Source: Luteibacter mycovicinus (lineage in GTDB: Bacteria; Pseudomonadota; Gammaproteobacteria; Xanthomonadales; Rhodanobacteraceae). Taken from it: DNA of 64,000 nucleotides. A program made the position numbers and the translations under genes. The DNA lies in the NCBI RefSeq assembly GCF_000745235.1, contig NZ_JQNL01000001.1, forward strand, positions 744,001-808,000, read 5' to 3'. Below the pieces are notes generated by a model. It saw only the letters and a program-made list of their open reading frames with translations. It searched no databases and was not told where the DNA came from. This document shows positions 35,600 through 54,535 of the stretch, piece after piece (position 1 is the stretch's first letter; every line of letters starts with the position of its first letter).

Positions 35600-36634
35600 A
35601 TGCAGCAGACGATGAAAGCGCTCGTGAAGCGCAAGCCCGAGCAAGGCATCTGGATGGAAGAAGTGCCGGTGCCGCAGGTCGGCCCGAACGAAGTCCTGAT
35701 CAAGATCGAAAAGACAGCCATCTGCGGAACGGACCTGCACATCTACAAGTGGGACGAGTGGTCCCAGCGCACCATCACGCCTGGCCTCACCATCGGCCAC
35801 GAGTTCGTCGGTCGCATCGCCGAGATCGGCCCGGGCGTCACCGGCTACAACATCGGCGATCGCGTCTCGGCCGAAGGCCACATCGTCTGCGGCCATTGCC
35901 GCAACTGTCGCGCCGGCCGTCAGCACCTGTGCCCGAACACCACGGGCATCGGCGTGAACCGCAACGGTGCCTTCGCCGAATACATGACCATGCCGGCGTC
36001 CAACCTGTGGCCGATCCCGGACCAGATTCCGTCCGAGCTGGCCGCTTTCTTCGACCCGTATGGCAACGCCGCGCACTGCGCACTCGAGTTCGACCTGATC
36101 GGTGAAGATGTCCTGATCACCGGCGCCGGTCCGATCGGCATCATCGCCGCAGGCATCGCCAAGCACGTCGGTGCGCGCAACGTGGTCGTCACCGATGTCA
36201 ACGACTACCGCCTGAAGCTCGCCGCCGACATGGGCGCCACGCGCGTGGTCAACGTGTCCAAGCAGTCGCTCAAGGACACCGTGAAGGACCTGCACATCGA
36301 AGGCTTCGACGTAGGTCTGGAGATGAGCGGCAACCCCCGCGCCTTCGGCGACATGCTCGACTGCATGTACCACGGCGGCAAGATCGCCATGCTCGGCATC
36401 ATGCCGCGTGGCGCCGGGATCGACTGGGACAAGGTCATCTTCAAGGGGCTCACCCTGCAGGGCATCTACGGCCGGAAGATGTACGAGACCTGGTACAAGA
36501 TGACCCAGATGGTGCTCACGGGCTTCCCGTTGCAGAAGGTGCTGACGCATCAGATCGCGATCGACGATTTCCAGAAGGGCTTCGACCTGATGGGCGCCGG
36601 TCACTGCGGCAAGGTGGTCTGCTCATGGACGTGA
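35600..36634 (+). CDS. tdh: L-threonine 3-dehydrogenase
   Basis: A 344-residue zinc MDR dehydrogenase oxidising threonine to 2-amino-3-oxobutyrate with NAD. Catalytic-zinc motif ICGTDLH and GHEFVG, structural zinc cysteines in [15 protein letters not shown], and dinucleotide motif [11 protein letters not shown] are all present. It overlaps kbl by 10 bp, forming the standard tdh-kbl threonine-to-glycine pathway (order reversed relative to E. coli kbl-tdh). Confidence 0.97.
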
Positions 36635-37830
36635 CCTACCCCGGCCAGACCCGTTTCGCCAGCGAGCTCGACGCCATCCGCGAACAGGGTCTGTTCAAGA
36701 AGGAGCGCATCATCGTCTCGCCGCAGTCGGCCGAGATCGAACTGGAAGGTGGCCGCAAGGTCCTCAATTTCTGTGCGAACAACTACCTCGGCCTCGCCGA
36801 TCACCCCGACGTGATCCAGGCGGCCAAGGACGCGCTCGACACGCACGGCTTCGGCATGGCCAGTGTGCGCTTCATCTGCGGCACGCAGGATCTGCACAAG
36901 GAGCTGGAGGCGAAGATCGCCACGTTCTTCGGCAAGGAGGACACGATCCTGTATGCCGCCTGCTTCGACGCCAACGGCGGTCTGTTCGAGCCGCTGCTGG
37001 GCGAGGAAGACGCGGTCATTTCCGACTCGCTTAACCACGCCTCGATCATCGATGGCATCCGCCTGTGCAAGGCAAAGCGTTTCCGCTACGCCAACTGTGA
37101 CATGGCCGATCTCGAAGCCCAGCTGCAGGCCGCCGATGCGGCGGGCGCACGCACCAAGCTGATCACCACCGACGGCGCGTTTTCGATGGACGGCTTCGTC
37201 GCCCCGCTGGCCGAGATCACCGCGCTGGCGAAGAAGTACGACGCGCTGGTCCACATCGACGAGTGCCACTGCACCGGCTTCCTGGGCGATACCGGCCGCG
37301 GCTCGGCCGAACTGCACGGCGTGCTCGACAAGATCGACATCATCACCGGCACGCTGGGCAAGGCACTCGGTGGCGCCCTGGGCGGTTTCACCACCGGCCG
37401 CCGTGAAGTCATCGAACTGCTGCGCCAGCGCTCGCGCCCGTACCTGTTCTCCAACTCGTTGCCACCGCACGTCGTCGCCGCCGGTACCAAGGTCTTCGAC
37501 ATGCTGGATGCCGCCGGCGACCTGCGCGAGAAGGTGAAGGAAAACACCCGCTATTTCCGCGAGAAGATGACCGACGCCGGTTTCGACATCCGTCCGGGTC
37601 AGCATCCGATCGTGCCGGTGATGATTTACGACGCGAAGCAGGCGCAGGCCATGGCTACCGAGTTGCTGGAGGAAGGCATCTACGTCACGGGCTTCTTCTT
37701 CCCCGTCGTACCGCAGGGCAAAGCACGTATCCGCACTCAGATGAGTGCGGCGCATACACGGGAACACCTGGATCACGCGATTGCGGCGTTCACCCGGGTG
37801 GGAAAGAAGCTGGGCGTGTTGAAGGGCTGA
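36625..37830 (+). CDS. kbl: Glycine C-acetyltransferase (2-amino-3-ketobutyrate CoA ligase)
   Basis: A 401-residue PLP alpha-oxoamine synthase splitting 2-amino-3-oxobutyrate with CoA into glycine and acetyl-CoA. The motif [10 protein letters not shown] and the PLP lysine in [12 protein letters not shown] are visible. Length fits Kbl. It starts inside the end of tdh, so the unstable intermediate is probably channelled. The quorum-signal synthase at 53264 is a distant member of the same enzyme family. Confidence 0.97.
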
Positions 37831-50111: not shown

Positions 50112-50176
50112 TGTCTCATATTGAAAGAATGGGGCCGTCCGCTATGCTGACGGCCGTGCCAAGCCATGGAACACCA

Positions 50177-50566
50177 ATGCGTGCGCTGCTCTTCGTCATC
50201 CTCGGCCTCGCGGTCGGCGCGATGGGCGCGACTTTCGCGCTGTCCGCCCTGCGTCAGGGCACGCCGTTCCATGACGGCGTGATGGCCGTGATGCAGCACC
50301 ACATGGGCGCGCTGCGAGCCAACGTGCGGGCGAAACAGTGCGATGCCAAGGTCTCGGCCGAGCGGCTAACGCGCCTGCGCCTGACGGCCGGCGACATTCG
50401 TGAGGCGTTCCCGGATATGGACGCGGGGTTCGCCAGAGCCGGCGCCACGCTGGATGCCGCACTGGATGCGGCCGTCGCGGCGGCGCCCGCCAGCTGCGAC
50501 GCCCTTGCCGTCGCGCTGAAACCCGTAGGCGATGCCTGCCAGTCCTGCCATCAGCAGTACCGCTGA
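50177..50566 (+). CDS. Small c-type cytochrome, cytochrome c'-like
   Basis: A 129-residue exported or membrane-anchored protein. An N-terminal hydrophobic segment (LLFVILGLAVGAMGATFAL) is followed by a four-helix-like region and a heme-binding CQSCH at 121-125, only four residues from the C-terminus. That placement is typical of class II (c') cytochromes, which bind NO or serve in electron transfer. Two further Cys (C55, C107) may form a disulfide. It starts a rightward gene set; lqsS follows after 3 bp, implying co-transcription. ATG 50177 is chosen because it begins the hydrophobic segment. Confidence 0.8.
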   Translation: MRALLFVILGLAVGAMGATFALSALRQGTPFHDGVMAVMQHHMGALRANVRAKQCDAKVSAERLTRLRLTAGDIREAFPDMDAGFARAGATLDAALDAAVAAAPASCDALAVALKPVGDACQSCHQQYR

Positions 50567-50569
50567 CCC

Positions 50570-51967
50570 ATGAACGACGCCGGCCCCTCTGTCGCCTCGC
50601 CTTCGGACAAGCCCACCGGTCCGCTCGGCTTCCTGCGCATGCGCTGGTGGCTGCTGGTGCGCGCCATGGCGCGCTTTGAAACGACCATGTTCCTGCGTAC
50701 GCGCTACTCGCAGCCGAAGATGGTGGCGATCGGCGTCGTCGGCAGCTTCTGCCTGGCGGTGTATTACCCGGTCTGGGCCTACCTGTTCCCGCAGCCCTAC
50801 GAGAACCTGCCCATGCGGCTGGTCTGTAGCGCGACCTTCATCCCGCTCGCCCTGCTGCCCTGGTGGCCGCGCCGCCTGCGGACGCATCTGCCGACATACT
50901 GGTATTTCGCGATGACGGTCGCGATGCCGTTTTTCGTCGGCTACATGACCTTACGCAACGCCACGCCCGCGTGGCTGATGACCCATCTTGCCTGCGTCAT
51001 GCTGCTGATGATGCTGTTCGACCTGGTCAGCTTCCTGCTGGTGTTCTCGCTGGGCAGCCTGCTCGCGGGTCTGGTGTTCGTGCTTTCCCCGGAAGCCCAC
51101 CTGCATACCCGGACGATGCTGGAGTACATCCCCTTGCTGATGTTCGGCATGGTCGGTGGCGCCACCTGCACGGTGTCGTCGAATATGGCCGAGCAGTCAC
51201 GGATCGACGCCCTGACCGCGGCGTCCAACAACATCGCCCACGAACTGCGCACGCCTCTGGGGTCGCTGCGCATCGCCGCGCGCGCCGTCGCCCGCTTCAT
51301 GCCCGATCTGATCCGCAGTCACCGGCTCGCCGAAAGCGAGGGCCTGGCCGTCCCCGAAATGCGCGCGCAGAACCTGCATGCCCTGGAGCGCAGCATCGGT
51401 GTGATGGAGCGCGAGGTCACCTACGCCAACACGATCATCGACATGCTGCTGCTCTCGGCGCGTCCGATCGGCGAGGTGCCGCTCTCCCTGCTCCAGGCCC
51501 GCGAGTGCGTGGAGCAGGCGCTACGCCGCTTTCCCTATGGCTCGCGCGCCGAACGAGACCGCATCACCCTGTCACCGACCGGCGACTTCTCGCTCATGGG
51601 CGAGGAAAGCCTGGTGGTCCACGTGCTGTTCAATCTTCTGCGCAATGCACTTTTTCATACAGATCGCGCGGGCAAGGGCGAGATCCGGGTCTTCATCGAG
51701 CCCGCCGACGGTGGCAACCGGATCCGGGTCCACGACACCGGTCCGGGCATCCCCGCGGATGTCCTGCCCCGCATTTTCAACCGGTTTTATTCCTATTCCA
51801 GCGACAGCGCCGGCACCGGCACCATCACCGGACTGGGAATAGGACTCGCTTTTTGCCGCGCGGCGATGGAGCATATGGGCGGTGGCATCGCATGCCGTAC
51901 CGACCTGGGTGAATTCACCGAATTCACTCTGACCTTCCCGCATTCGAACACCGGGGGCCGGCAGTGA
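50570..51967 (+). CDS. lqsS: Sensor histidine kinase, LqsS/CqsS-type (alpha-hydroxyketone receptor)
   Basis: A 465-residue kinase. The N-terminal half has six membrane helices and the segment YYPVWAYLFPQPYENLPMRL, which resembles the ligand-binding helix region of CqsS and LqsS. The phospho-acceptor is H224 in NNIAHELRTPLGSL; the HATPase shows NLLRNALFH, DTGPGIP and GLGIGLAFC. There is no receiver domain, as in LqsS, unlike the hybrid CqsS. Its stop overlaps lqsR by 4 bp (GTGA). The synthase for the probable signal lies two genes downstream. Assignment is by recognisable motif and gene context; ligand inferred. Confidence 0.85.
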   Translation: MNDAGPSVASPSDKPTGPLGFLRMRWWLLVRAMARFETTMFLRTRYSQPKMVAIGVVGSFCLAVYYPVWAYLFPQPYENLPMRLVCSATFIPLALLPWWPRRLRTHLPTYWYFAMTVAMPFFVGYMTLRNATPAWLMTHLACVMLLMMLFDLVSFLLVFSLGSLLAGLVFVLSPEAHLHTRTMLEYIPLLMFGMVGGATCTVSSNMAEQSRIDALTAASNNIAHELRTPLGSLRIAARAVARFMPDLIRSHRLAESEGLAVPEMRAQNLHALERSIGVMEREVTYANTIIDMLLLSARPIGEVPLSLLQARECVEQALRRFPYGSRAERDRITLSPTGDFSLMGEESLVVHVLFNLLRNALFHTDRAGKGEIRVFIEPADGGNRIRVHDTGPGIPADVLPRIFNRFYSYSSDSAGTGTITGLGIGLAFCRAAMEHMGGGIACRTDLGEFTEFTLTFPHSNTGGRQ

Positions 51968-53004
51968 CGACGTTGAACGCGCAGGGCGACATCCAGCCTT
52001 TCCATTTCCCGACCACCACGGTGCTGGTCGACGACCACGAGGAATACCTCGACGTCGTCCCGTTGTTGCTCGATCCCATGGTCCGGGTCCGCACCTTCAG
52101 TTCACCGCGCAGCGCGCTGGCCACGCTGGGCAACAACGGCAGCCGTCCGGTGCCGGGCGGCGGCTGGCTCTACCGCTGGAAGGACCGCCCCTCGGAGACT
52201 CAGGAGCTGGTGGCCCTCGATATCGATTCGATCCATCGGGTGGTCTACGACCCGGAGCGCTTCGCGGAGATTTCGGTGGTGGTGGTGGATCAGGCCATGC
52301 CCGAGATGGACGGCATCACGTTCTGCAAGCGCCTGCCGAATCCGCATATCGGCAAGATCCTGCTGACCGGCCGGGCCGATGACGCCACGGCGATCGATGC
52401 CTTCAATTCGGGCGTGATCGACCGCTTCATCCGCAAGAACGACCCGCTGGCCATCGAGAAGCTGCAGACCGCCATCTCCGAGCTGCAGCGCCGGTACTTC
52501 GACCGTGCCAGCGCTTTCGTCGCCGAAACGCTGGCCCTGGGCAACTTCCGCTTCCTGCGCGACCCCGCCTTCCGCGAGGTCCTGCAGAGCGTCACCGCCA
52601 CGTTCCAGCCCGTGGAGTGCTACGTGCACTGCAATCCGACGGGCCTGTTACTGGTCGACGCCTGGGGGATCGGCCGGTTCCTGCTGGTTCAGACGGACGA
52701 GGACCTGCGCACCCACTATGAAATTGCGGCAGATCTGGGGGCCCCCGGCGCCGTCCTGGAGTCCCTGCGGAGCGGCGAAGCCCTGCCCTGGTTCAACTCC
52801 CGTGACGGCTTCTATCACAAAGGCGTGGAGCGGCCTGAAGAACACATGTATGCCGCCACCGCCGTTTCCGGCGAGCAGTGGTACTACTACGCCCTGATCG
52901 ACGACGTTGAGCGCTTCCGGCTTCAGCACGTCAAGTCGTACCGCACCTGGCTCCGGGAGCAGGATCTGAGTCTGGCCGCCGACAGCCGACCACGATTCAT
53001 CTAA
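51964..53004 (+). CDS. lqsR: Response regulator, LqsR-like
   Basis: A 346-residue regulator with an N-terminal receiver domain and no recognisable DNA-binding domain. The acidic pocket is D23/D24 (VLVDDHEEY) and the phospho-acceptor is D109 (VVVDQAMPEMDG), preceded by an unusually long insertion between strands 1 and 3 (about 50-100). LqsR of Legionella has the same late acceptor (D108), similar length and a non-DNA-binding C-terminal half. GTG 51964 is used, overlapping lqsS. The C-terminal part (about 200-346) is a distinct fold with VECYVHCNPTGLLLVDAWG. It should receive phosphate from the LqsS-like kinase. Confidence 0.85.
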   Translation: MTTLNAQGDIQPFHFPTTTVLVDDHEEYLDVVPLLLDPMVRVRTFSSPRSALATLGNNGSRPVPGGGWLYRWKDRPSETQELVALDIDSIHRVVYDPERFAEISVVVVDQAMPEMDGITFCKRLPNPHIGKILLTGRADDATAIDAFNSGVIDRFIRKNDPLAIEKLQTAISELQRRYFDRASAFVAETLALGNFRFLRDPAFREVLQSVTATFQPVECYVHCNPTGLLLVDAWGIGRFLLVQTDEDLRTHYEIAADLGAPGAVLESLRSGEALPWFNSRDGFYHKGVERPEEHMYAATAVSGEQWYYYALIDDVERFRLQHVKSYRTWLREQDLSLAADSRPRFI

Positions 53005-53090
53005 ACGGGTTACTTTCGCCCTTCCGGAAACGCCATCGCGCCCAGCACCCGGCGCGTGGCGTTGTGTTGCCCAAAACATGCGGTGCGCTC

Positions 53091-53195
53091 GCGGGTCTTC
53101 CGACCCGCCGACGCTTCTCTCCAGGTATTGCGTAAGGCCGCAGGGTCGTTCGCGACCCACCCCTGGCCTTTCTCGTTTTCGCGCCCGCCCGGGCG
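53091..53195 (+). promoter_or_regulatory. Structured leader of the autoinducer synthase gene
   Basis: Three perfect hairpins lie between lqsR and the synthase: GCGGGTC/GACCCGC (53091-53108, TTCC loop), GGGTCG/CGACCC (53143-53158, TTCG loop) and CGCCCG/CGGGCG (53182-53195). They could form a post-transcriptional control region. No matching T-tract follows, so termination is unlikely. Confidence 0.45.
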
Positions 53196-53263
53196 AGGTT
53201 GGCGCGCGCGTGCCGTTCGTGGTGAACGGCAACGTGTCCATCGCCCATGCCATCGAGAGAGAG

Positions 53264-54535
53264 ATGTCCATGGAAAACGTTTCCGTTCTGCACCGTGTCG
53301 TTACCGCCCCTGCGCTGCCTGGCTTCGTTGCGACCCGCGTGGATCGATTCCACAACGAACGCGTGGCGATCGACTGGGGTGGCCGTCACATTTTGCGCGG
53401 GCGTCGCCCCGCCGGCGACGACCTGATGCTCCAGAGCAACGATTACCTCGCGATCGCGGGACATCCCGCCATCGTCGAAGCACAGCGTGAGGCACTGGCC
53501 GAAGGCGGCCTTGGCATGATGATGTCGGCGCTGTTTCAGCAGGACGCGGATCAGCCGCTGCATCGTGTGGAGGCCGAGCTGGCGCGCGCGGTAGGGAGTG
53601 AGGACGGCATCCTCGCGCAATCCGGTTTCGCCGCCAACGTCGGCCTCATCCAGTCCATCGCCGGCGATCGCATCCCCGTCTACGTCGACATGCTCGCGCA
53701 CGCGTCGTTATGGGAAGGCATTCGCAGCGCCGGGGCCAGAGCGGTGTCCGTATTGCACAACGACGTGACGCATCTGGAGCGACAGGTACTGCGCAACGGC
53801 CCGGGCGTGATCGTCGTGGATGCGGTCTACAGCACCAACGGCAGCCTCGCTCCCCTCGAGGCCATCGCCAACCTGTCCCGGGAGCACGGCTGCGTCCTCG
53901 TCGTCGACGAGTCGCATTCGCTGGGTACGCACGGCGTGCGCGGGGAAGGACTGGTTGCCAGCCTGGGCCTCAACGACCGCGTGCATTTCATCACGGCGAG
54001 CCTGGCCAAGGCGTATTGCTCGCGCGCGGGGTTCATCGCGTGCACCACACGTTTCAAGGATTATTTCGGTTGCGAAGCTCTGCCCGCCATCTTCAGCTCG
54101 TCCTTGCTGCCACACGAACTCGCGGGCATGTCGGCGGCCCATCGGGTCATCCAGACCGAGGGCTGGAGGCGCCAGCGCCTGCGCCAGGTGACGCGCCGGG
54201 TACGCGCGGAACTGACGGAACTGGGCTATCCGATCGCGGATGGAACCGAGCAGATCATCGCCTTCGAAGCCGGCCAGGAGATCCTCACCGGCAAGGTACG
54301 TGACGTGATGGAACAGCACGGCGTCTTCGGTTCCGTGTTCAGCGCACCTGCCACCACGGTCAACCGCTCGTTGCTGCGCCTGACACTGAACGCGGGCATG
54401 AGCGACGACGACGTGGCACGACTGATCGACGTGTGCCGCGTCGCGCGTGACGCCATGGCGTTGCCGTCATGGAGCGCCATGCGTCGGGCGCGCCGCGACG
54501 GCGAGCGGGAATCGGCGGCCGCCGAAGTGGCGTGA
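53264..54535 (+). CDS. cqsA: Alpha-hydroxyketone autoinducer synthase, CqsA/LqsA-type
   Basis: A 423-residue PLP enzyme of the alpha-oxoamine synthase family. It matches CqsA: LQSNDYLAIAGHP early, LAQSGFAANVGLIQSI, DESHSLGTHGVRG with D215/H218, and the PLP lysine K249 in FITASLAKAYCS. CqsA/LqsA condense an amino acid-derived or SAM substrate with an acyl-CoA to make CAI-1/LAI-1. ATG 53264 is used (GAGAG just upstream), with ATG 53270 possible. About 259 nt separate it from lqsR, and the sensor kinase and regulator directly upstream make a complete sense-and-signal set. Confidence 0.87.
   Translation: MSMENVSVLHRVVTAPALPGFVATRVDRFHNERVAIDWGGRHILRGRRPAGDDLMLQSNDYLAIAGHPAIVEAQREALAEGGLGMMMSALFQQDADQPLHRVEAELARAVGSEDGILAQSGFAANVGLIQSIAGDRIPVYVDMLAHASLWEGIRSAGARAVSVLHNDVTHLERQVLRNGPGVIVVDAVYSTNGSLAPLEAIANLSREHGCVLVVDESHSLGTHGVRGEGLVASLGLNDRVHFITASLAKAYCSRAGFIACTTRFKDYFGCEALPAIFSSSLLPHELAGMSAAHRVIQTEGWRRQRLRQVTRRVRAELTELGYPIADGTEQIIAFEAGQEILTGKVRDVMEQHGVFGSVFSAPATTVNRSLLRLTLNAGMSDDDVARLIDVCRVARDAMALPSWSAMRRARRDGERESAAAEVA

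What the first reader, a model, noticed from the sequence alone, without database searches (positions are those of the whole stretch)
50570..54535. Complete Lqs/Cqs-type alpha-hydroxyketone quorum-sensing cluster in a xanthomonad-like chromosome
Sequence: a six-helix sensor kinase with PQPYENLP in its membrane region and H224, a receiver protein with acceptor D109 after a long insertion, and an alpha-oxoamine synthase with DESHSLGTHG and K249 lie consecutively on one strand, the first two overlapping by 4 bp. Family knowledge: these match LqsS, LqsR and LqsA of Legionella (and CqsS/CqsA of Vibrio), which make and sense LAI-1/CAI-1. Inference: this organism has a complete, single-locus alpha-hydroxyketone signalling system. 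Xanthomonads are usually discussed for DSF signalling, so the finding would widen the known range. The gene order (kinase-regulator-synthase) also differs from Legionella (lqsA-lqsR-hdeD-lqsS).
Basis: partly seen in the sequence, partly recalled or inferred. Interest (0 to 1): 0.85.

Follow-up and report, generated by a model that had tools for sequence, protein, structure and literature searches.

The report
Luteibacter hydroxyketone quorum-sensing cluster with RNA leader
A bacterium of the genus Luteibacter carries a complete set of genes for making and sensing a fatty hydroxy-ketone signal like those of Vibrio and Legionella, and its signal-making gene sits behind a conserved folded RNA that looks like an unrecognised control element.

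Summary
The genome is a Luteibacter (Rhodanobacteraceae, Lysobacterales). The synthase passes NCBI's alpha-hydroxyketone synthase model (533.6 bits, cut-off 428), its best solved relative is CqsA, and it groups with CqsA/LqsA away from Kbl/BioF in a tree. The kinase has the CqsS membrane domain; the regulator matches solved chain 6SY9 (recalled as Legionella LqsR) nearly end to end (E 7e-50). The module is in 23 of 23 Luteibacter genomes, order lqsS-lqsR-lqsA, at a conserved chromosomal site. New points: (1) in all 23 the lqsR-lqsA gap holds a covarying RNA structure with a likely pseudoknot (GGGCGA/UCGCCC) and a Shine-Dalgarno facing an upstream complement; one copy per genome, no Rfam match. 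(2) Two related genera (10 of 10 genomes) keep kinase and regulator under purifying selection, lack the synthase, and have replaced the head-group Phe that 57 of 57 receptors with a synthase beside them keep. Signal chemistry and leader function are untested. The system is a new member of a known kind; the leader RNA is the most novel part.

The parts
50177..50566 (+). small class II c-type cytochrome gene, 3 bases before lqsS; a family-wide neighbour, probably not part of the signalling system
   Evidence: Pfam Cytochrom_C_2 E 4.1e-9; CxxCH, M36, H42, C55, C107 invariant in 16 rows; profile hit in 209 of 233 family genomes, with or without lqs
50570..51967 (+). lqsS/cqsS-type membrane sensor histidine kinase without fused receiver; H224; F192, G196, C200 at the positions of V. 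cholerae CqsS F162, F166, C170
   Evidence: HATPase_c E 5e-23; membrane domain homologous to Vibrio CqsS; residue mapping
51964..53004 (+). lqsR-type response regulator, acceptor D109
   Evidence: chain 6SY9 over residues 10-335, E 7e-50; D23 D24 D109 K158 invariant in 77 rows
53114..53272 (+). structured leader of lqsA (model R1): outer pairing of Shine-Dalgarno with an upstream complement, hairpins, pseudoknot
53116..53122 (+). TCTCTCC, 5' strand of the outer helix (complement of the Shine-Dalgarno)
   Evidence: alignment; helix 78.1% paired
53191..53196 (+). GGGCGA hairpin loop, 5' strand of the proposed pseudoknot
   Evidence: 97.1% of cells paired, G-C to A-U in two genomes
53241..53246 (+). 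TCGCCC, 3' strand of the proposed pseudoknot
53255..53264 (+). GAGAGAGAGA, Shine-Dalgarno region of lqsA
   Evidence: conserved before the shared ATG at 53270
53270..54535 (+). lqsA/cqsA-type alpha-hydroxyketone autoinducer synthase (PLP lysine K249 counted from 53264, K247 from 53270)
   Evidence: NF005526 533.6 bits, cut-off 428; CqsA 3hqt E 1.7e-106; tree

Best explanation
A complete alpha-hydroxyketone quorum-sensing module, inherited largely vertically in its family. LqsA (a PLP enzyme) joins an acyl-CoA to SAM or an amino acid to give an aminoketone that the cell converts to an alpha-hydroxyketone signal. The signal builds up with cell density and binds the membrane domain of LqsS, shifting it between kinase and phosphatase. 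LqsS exchanges phosphate through H224 with D109 of LqsR, whose C-terminal domain passes the output on. lqsA sits behind a folded leader RNA that most likely holds translation down until a factor or condition opens it. Shown here: gene content, homology, conserved catalytic residues, conserved locus, conserved covarying leader. Inferred from Vibrio and Legionella work: chemistry, ligand sensing, phosphotransfer. Inferred from sequence only: that the leader controls translation.
For: Synthase: NF005526 533.6 bits against 428, next best bioF 234.5 against 426; CqsA structures E about 1e-106 against 2.4e-39 or weaker for other enzymes; split from Kbl/BioF/Spt-like at SH-aLRT 100; CqsA K236 equivalent invariant in 14 and 6 of 9 CqsA acyl-pocket residues kept (pocket list from PMC3285556). 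Kinase: membrane domain, head-group residue F192 kept. Regulator. Unit: S, R and A in 23 of 23 Luteibacter genomes (in one, MAG G017, the synthase has a premature stop), synteny, dN/dS well under 1 for all three. Leader: 87.6% of 683 cells paired, 12 of 30 pairs with changes on both sides, 0 of 500 shuffles reach the covariation score, slid versions at most 58.4%; mean folding z -3.04 in 23 leaders against means of -1.06 to +0.30 for seven gene sets, 66 control upstream regions in all, of the same genus.
Against: No chemistry, expression data or phenotype. Three of nine acyl-pocket residues differ (V32L, F257C, C346S), so the product may differ from CAI-1/LAI-1. Shine-Dalgarno pairing is only modestly above controls (0.77 against 0.53-0.70) and one single control region folds at z -6.21, below every leader (control starts were set by the nearest in-frame start codon, 40 shuffles each against 60 for leaders). 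The window's own leader is less striking than most (z -2.30, 4 of 200 shuffles as good; -3.09); the weakest leader has z -0.44. The pseudoknot rests on near-invariant pairs with one pair that changes on both sides (16 of 500 shuffles reach its score, 184 of 500 its count). Related sequences can beat shuffles without structure, as the tool warns. Model R1 does not recognise the leaders of Tahibacter, Mizugakiibacter, Oleiagrimonas or Pinirhizobacter, and Pinirhizobacter's folds no better than shuffles (z -0.49). The output of LqsR is unknown.
Confidence: 0.9

Rival explanations
1. The synthase is a housekeeping alpha-oxoamine synthase (Kbl, BioF or Spt type) that happens to lie beside a two-component pair.
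For: Same superfamily; the genome has three other members.
Against: Equivalog score, CqsA as best solved relative, tree placement; the genome's own Kbl-like (window 36625-37827), BioF (beside a BioB-like ORF) and Spt-like genes are separate (these three were named by sequence and neighbours, not by a profile call).
Confidence: 0.02
2. The module is intact but the signal is not a CAI-1/LAI-1-like alpha-hydroxyketone: a related product with another tail or head is made and sensed.
For: Acyl pocket differs at 3 of 9 positions; receptor has C200 where V. harveyi has F175, and G196 where Vibrio has F166; Vibrio work ties these positions to tail and head preference (PMC3285556, PMC5467912, passages).
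Against: Head-group Phe (F192) and W135 kept; catalytic lysine kept.
Confidence: 0.3
3. The lqsR-lqsA leader is not a regulatory RNA but GC-rich spacer, a DNA operator palindrome, or an mRNA-stabilising or decay hairpin.
For: High GC; GA/TC repeats pair easily; SD pairing only modestly above controls; weak covariation in the outer helix and the pseudoknot.
Against: Loop conserved while the stem changes in step (5 of 10 pairs with changes on both sides, 0 of 500 shuffles reach the score); slid pairings at most 58.4% against 87.6%.
Confidence: 0.3
4. The cytochrome gene 3 bases upstream is a functional part (for example a redox or NO input to the kinase).
For: Tight spacing, same strand, same order in Luteibacter, Tahibacter, Mizugakiibacter, Pinirhizobacter, Oleiagrimonas and the Dyella-type genera.
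Against: The cytochrome stays beside tcdA in 19 of 19 fetched loci without lqs there and has a profile hit in 209 of 233 family genomes, so the linkage is the old address; two Luteibacter genomes (G007, G009) had no hit; its mean dN/dS is the highest of the genes compared within Luteibacter and within Tahibacter.
Confidence: 0.08

Closest known systems
Lqs system of Legionella (LqsA, LqsS, LqsR)
   Same: Same three parts, kinase and regulator as separate proteins; LqsR aligns over residues 10-335 with 6SY9.
   Different: Order S-R-A on one strand against a convergent synthase in the Legionella loci seen; kinase and regulator genes overlap by 4 bp; no hdeD between them; leader RNA before lqsA; LqsR 33-37% identical to the Legionella rows.
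CqsA/CqsS of Vibrio
   Same: Synthase 40-45% identical; membrane domain with FPQPYENLP and the head-group Phe.
   Different: Vibrio CqsS carries a fused receiver; here the receiver is a separate LqsR.
Jqs system of Janthinobacterium (PMC3566124, passages and section 22)
   Same: Synthase, kinase and separate regulator side by side in an environmental bacterium.
   Different: In the Massilia and Collimonas (same family) loci seen here the synthase is divergent from kinase-regulator; the Janthinobacterium locus itself was not fetched. JAI-1 structure not identified in that paper.

Membership tests
CqsA/LqsA alpha-hydroxyketone autoinducer synthase (NF005526) | score above the curated equivalog cut-off | tested here: met
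   533.6 bits, cut-off 428
CqsA/LqsA alpha-hydroxyketone autoinducer synthase (NF005526) | PLP lysine (CqsA K236) conserved | tested here: met
   K249 aligned, invariant in 14
CqsA/LqsA alpha-hydroxyketone autoinducer synthase (NF005526) | groups with CqsA/LqsA, not with Kbl/BioF/Spt | tested here: met
   SH-aLRT 100, quick tree of 57 rows, one outgroup sequence per enzyme
CqsA/LqsA alpha-hydroxyketone autoinducer synthase (NF005526) | makes an alpha-hydroxyketone precursor from acyl-CoA and SAM or 2-aminobutyrate | not testable with these tools
   needs enzymology
CqsS/LqsS sensor kinase | CqsS-type membrane sensing domain | tested here: met
   membrane part alone E 3.9e-25 (84 bits) to a Vibrio CqsS; 200 shuffles at most 21.2 bits
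CqsS/LqsS sensor kinase | HisKA histidine and HATPase domain | tested here: met
   H224 invariant in 9; HATPase_c E 5e-23; HisKA 23.4 bits, just under its 26.9 cut-off
CqsS/LqsS sensor kinase | six transmembrane helices | tested here: inconclusive
   hydropathy scan too coarse, 2 segments called
Vibrio CqsS in the strict sense | fused C-terminal receiver | tested here: not met
   absent here, as in the Legionella kinase aligned; so the kinase is filed as LqsS-type
LqsR response regulator | receiver with insertion plus LqsR C-terminal domain | tested here: met
   6SY9 residues 26-355, E 7e-50; C-terminal half alone E 9.9e-12; 6SY9 is listed only as 'Response regulator', its naming as LqsR is recalled
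alpha-hydroxyketone quorum-sensing system | synthase and receptor encoded side by side | tested here: met
alpha-hydroxyketone quorum-sensing system | density-dependent signal made and answered by the cell | not testable with these tools
   no chemistry or expression data
Known Rfam cis-regulatory RNA (leader) | match to a described family | tested here: not met
   no gathering match in the window; of 6 matches at E up to 1 in 12 loci, including this one, none at the leader

The most novel reading that the evidence does not exclude
The lqsR-lqsA spacer of Luteibacter is an undescribed cis-acting RNA: a multi-hairpin leader closed by a pseudoknot that gates translation of the autoinducer synthase, giving a quorum-sensing system an RNA-level control of signal production. 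Leaders with the same broad plan (Shine-Dalgarno paired with an upstream complement around hairpins) but without sequence kinship that our model detects stand before lqsA in Tahibacter, Mizugakiibacter and Oleiagrimonas. In addition, related genera have turned the receptor-regulator pair into a sensor for something other than an alpha-hydroxyketone of their own after losing the synthase.
Probability: 0.5. Interest if true: 0.72.

Novelty: new member of a known kind. Interest (0 to 1): 0.58.

Why it matters
It shows a complete alpha-hydroxyketone circuit in every Luteibacter genome held and an evolutionary series at one locus: full circuit, receptor and regulator without synthase, and site without the module. 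The Phe that is invariant where a synthase lies beside the receptor and replaced in the synthase-less genera makes the question 'what does a signal receptor do after its own signal is lost' directly testable. If the leader RNA is a switch, it would be a new layer of control on autoinducer production.

Tried and rejected
Cytochrome as third partner: looked promising (3-base spacing, conserved order) until loci without lqs showed tcdA beside the cytochrome in 19 of 19 (pirin also near in 16; not found in L258, L263, L264; in L247 some 2.2 kb of other sequence lies before pirin). Rejected as evidence of function.

Leader element elsewhere: weak R1 hits in 10 other family genomes (E 9e-4 to 0.1) and 8 weak hits in this genome. 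I checked 8 of those 10 genomes and 4 of the 8 own hits; each hit overlaps a long ORF and was taken as chance. The hits of G431, G455 and four own hits were not checked for ORFs. Homology of the leader across genera: not found by R1, only a like plan.

Eavesdropping by the synthase-less genera on the same signal: weakened, not excluded, by the loss of the head-group Phe in 10 of 10.

Structure prediction of LqsR (77-row alignment A5): asked in 14 calls, never accepted because the queue was full; so no fold search was made. DSF (rpf) genes of this genome were not tested.
Full report
1. What is there. The window is part of a one-contig 4.63 Mb genome (G000, window = 744001-808000). The best named LqsR matches are Luteibacter (13 loci at 92-96%); NCBI lineage Gammaproteobacteria, Lysobacterales, Rhodanobacteraceae. 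Three genes lie on one strand: kinase 50570-51967, regulator 51964-53004 with a 4-bp overlap, synthase to 54535. The synthase start is best put at 53270: that ATG and a GAGAGAGA-type Shine-Dalgarno are shared by Luteibacter relatives, whereas several relatives have a much shorter open frame than the one reaching back to 53078 here.

2. Synthase. NF005526 (alpha-hydroxyketone-type autoinducer synthase) 533.6 bits against a cut-off of 428; bioF, glycine C-acetyltransferase and serine palmitoyltransferase models stay far below theirs. Best solved relatives are CqsA entries, E 1.7e-106. In a quick maximum-likelihood tree of 57 rows the CqsA/LqsA side parts from the genome's own Kbl-, BioF- and Spt-like enzymes at SH-aLRT 100, and the family's lqs synthases form one group (17 rows, 97); it holds one long-branch second copy from G021, while the second copy of G020 falls outside it. 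Twelve near-duplicate, short or badly called synthases were left out of that tree. The PLP lysine is invariant in 14 aligned synthases. Of nine CqsA acyl-pocket residues listed in PMC3285556 (passages) six are identical and three differ (V32L, F257C, C346S).

3. Kinase. The N-terminal part alone aligns with a Vibrio CqsS membrane domain at E 3.9e-25 (84 bits), against at most 21.2 bits in 200 shuffles, and shares FPQPYENLP. Numbered from its upstream GTG start, V. campbellii CqsS has F at 167, 171 and 175, which fits the published F162 and F166 of V. cholerae with offset 5 and F175 of V. harveyi; this numbering is my assumption. The window has F192, G196 and C200 there. PMC5467912 (passages) assigns F162/F166 to head-group and C170 to tail-length recognition. 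At the C170 position Luteibacter has Cys in 14 of 14 rows (window included), the Tahibacter-type rows have Phe; by analogy Luteibacter should accept longer tails. W104 and S107, also tabulated, were picked from recall.

4. Regulator. Match to 6SY9 (listed as 'Response regulator'; that it is Legionella LqsR is recalled), E 7e-50 over residues 10-335; the C-terminal half alone E 9.9e-12. D23, D24, D109 and K158 are invariant in 77 rows.

5. Distribution and locus. Synthase in 23 of 23 Luteibacter genomes held (in MAG G017 with a premature stop), 34 of 233 family genomes above cut-off (35 at E up to 1e-90) in 5 of 26 genera, and 8 of 369 genomes spread over the class above cut-off (11 at E up to 1e-70). 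LqsR in 49 of 233 family genomes. The orthologous module lies at one address, tcdA - cytochrome - S - R - A - (pirin, hydrolase), in the family loci that had enough flank, with single neighbours not detected in some: cytochrome in G009 and L137, tcdA in L141, pirin in G005, Oleiagrimonas and Pinirhizobacter; L142, L121 and L140 are cut or split by contig ends. Nineteen loci from relatives without the module there were fetched around the cytochrome: 19 have tcdA beside it, none has S, R or A, 16 have pirin near; three of these genomes carry a distant S-R pair elsewhere. Trees of S+R and of flanking genes agree in setting Tahibacter and Mizugakiibacter apart from Luteibacter and in the grouping of the other genera (root support of the family in the S+R tree is only 74, several deep flank branches are weak). 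Simplest reading, an inference: gained before these genera split, then lost repeatedly. Elsewhere the synthase is convergent (Legionella, Alcanivorax, Nitrococcus loci), divergent (Massilia, Collimonas loci), and collinear in G209.

6. Synthase-less relatives. In g292 an M28 peptidase gene follows lqsR. S and R remain under purifying selection: dN/dS for R 0.027-0.070 (g292, 6 pairs) and 0.070-0.132 (g296, 10 pairs of 5 of the 6 genomes), for S 0.078-0.108 and 0.101-0.220; in five Luteibacter and four Tahibacter-type loci with synthase, R 0.006-0.055 and S 0.084-0.174 (pairs share branches). At the F162 position 57 of 57 receptors with a synthase beside them have Phe; g292 has Met (4 of 4) and g296 Leu (6 of 6), while the three distant-pair rows included keep Phe; of 8 further receptors with no synthase in the stretch held, 6 have Phe, 1 Ser, 1 Ala. 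g292 and g296 form one S+R clade (support 100), so this is one or two changes, not ten, and many of the 57 rows are close kin.

7. Leader RNA. The lqsR-lqsA gap is 247-276 bases in 13 Luteibacter loci measured, 112-132 in eight loci of Tahibacter, Mizugakiibacter type and Oleiagrimonas, 277 in one Tahibacter-group MAG and 327 in Pinirhizobacter (L121 gave no start; G007 and G015 are shorter than other Luteibacter). Twenty-three Luteibacter leaders, one per genome, aligned by MAFFT without structure, support an outer helix pairing TCTCTC with the GAGAGA of the Shine-Dalgarno, a ten-pair hairpin with loop GGGCGA, a further hairpin, and a six-pair pseudoknot GGGCGA/TCGCCC that RNAalifold itself picked (it did not pick the outer helix or the ten-pair hairpin). 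Of 683 cells 87.6% pair; 12 of 30 pairs change on both sides; 0 of 500 shuffles reach the covariation score; slid versions pair at most 58.4%. The ten-pair hairpin alone: 86.2%, 0 of 500 on the score, 96 of 500 on further pair types. The pseudoknot alone: 97.1%, 16 of 500 on the score, 184 of 500 on pairs with a double change, one such pair: suggestive, not proof. The outer helix is weakest, 78.1% with one double change. I drew the structure after looking at these sequences. Folding z: mean -3.04 over 23 leaders (-0.44 to -5.18), against means of -1.06 to +0.30 for seven gene sets (66 control regions; lowest single control -6.21); Shine-Dalgarno pairing 0.77 against 0.53-0.70. Other genera, z: Oleiagrimonas -5.14, Mizugakiibacter -3.24, Tahibacter-type -5.18, -4.39, -5.37, -3.78, -4.63, Pinirhizobacter -0.49. 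Model R1 finds one copy in each of 23 of 23 Luteibacter genomes, which trained it; no other hit looked convincing, though not every weak one was examined. No Rfam match at the leader. No terminator-like site in the gap.

8. Literature. Searches of the held library (most gave capped listings, for example 25 of 36 and 8 of 176 papers) listed no paper that by title or abstract treats alpha-hydroxyketone signalling in Luteibacter or its family, or a structured leader of cqsA/lqsA. Papers seen beyond listings: PMC3376566 (abstract, section 12, first part of section 8), PMC3566124 (passages, section 22), PMC3285556 and PMC5467912 (passages). Subscription journals are not held. NCBI's own model would already name this synthase, so the annotation is not new; the locus history, receptor remodelling and leader are what is added here.

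9. Verdict. As a system it is a new member of a known kind. The structured leader and the re-shaped receptors without synthase are the points worth an experiment.

Noticed in passing
L084 7995-9206 (G021) and L085 8765-10042 (G020): Two Luteibacter genomes carry a second CqsA/LqsA-type synthase (54% and 49% identical) without a recognised lqs kinase or regulator in the 17-18 kb fetched.
   Followed up: partly
L118 9310-10410 (MAG, G017): lqsA of one Luteibacter MAG has a premature stop; sequencing error or real truncation not decided.
   Followed up: no
L206, L207, L208, L209: A distant lqsS-lqsR-like pair (35-37% identical) without synthase in the stretch sits elsewhere in four family genomes; the usual site lacked lqs in the three of them that were fetched.
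   Followed up: partly
L169, L176, L186, L191, L192, L193, L195: lqs-like clusters with synthase occur in several Legionella species other than L. pneumophila, whereas the 2012 review PMC3376566 thought the system absent there; other Legionella loci show kinase and regulator with no synthase in the stretch held.
   Followed up: partly
L052, L053, L054, L055: CqsA/LqsA-type synthases on replicons filed as plasmids in Cupriavidus, Vibrio and Tistrella (43-54% identical).
   Followed up: partly
L043 1-330, L057 3823-4182, L060 3885-4173, L062 3694-3982: Below-cut-off matches to the cspA thermoregulator leader near the lqs locus of Tahibacter-type genomes.
   Followed up: no
L197 4977-6107: One IMG/VR viral contig encodes a distant relative of the synthase (30-36%), on a long branch; not clearly CqsA.
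   Followed up: no
window 50121-50148: Weak sigma-70-like match upstream of the cytochrome gene (9 of 12; 0.7 expected by chance).
   Followed up: no
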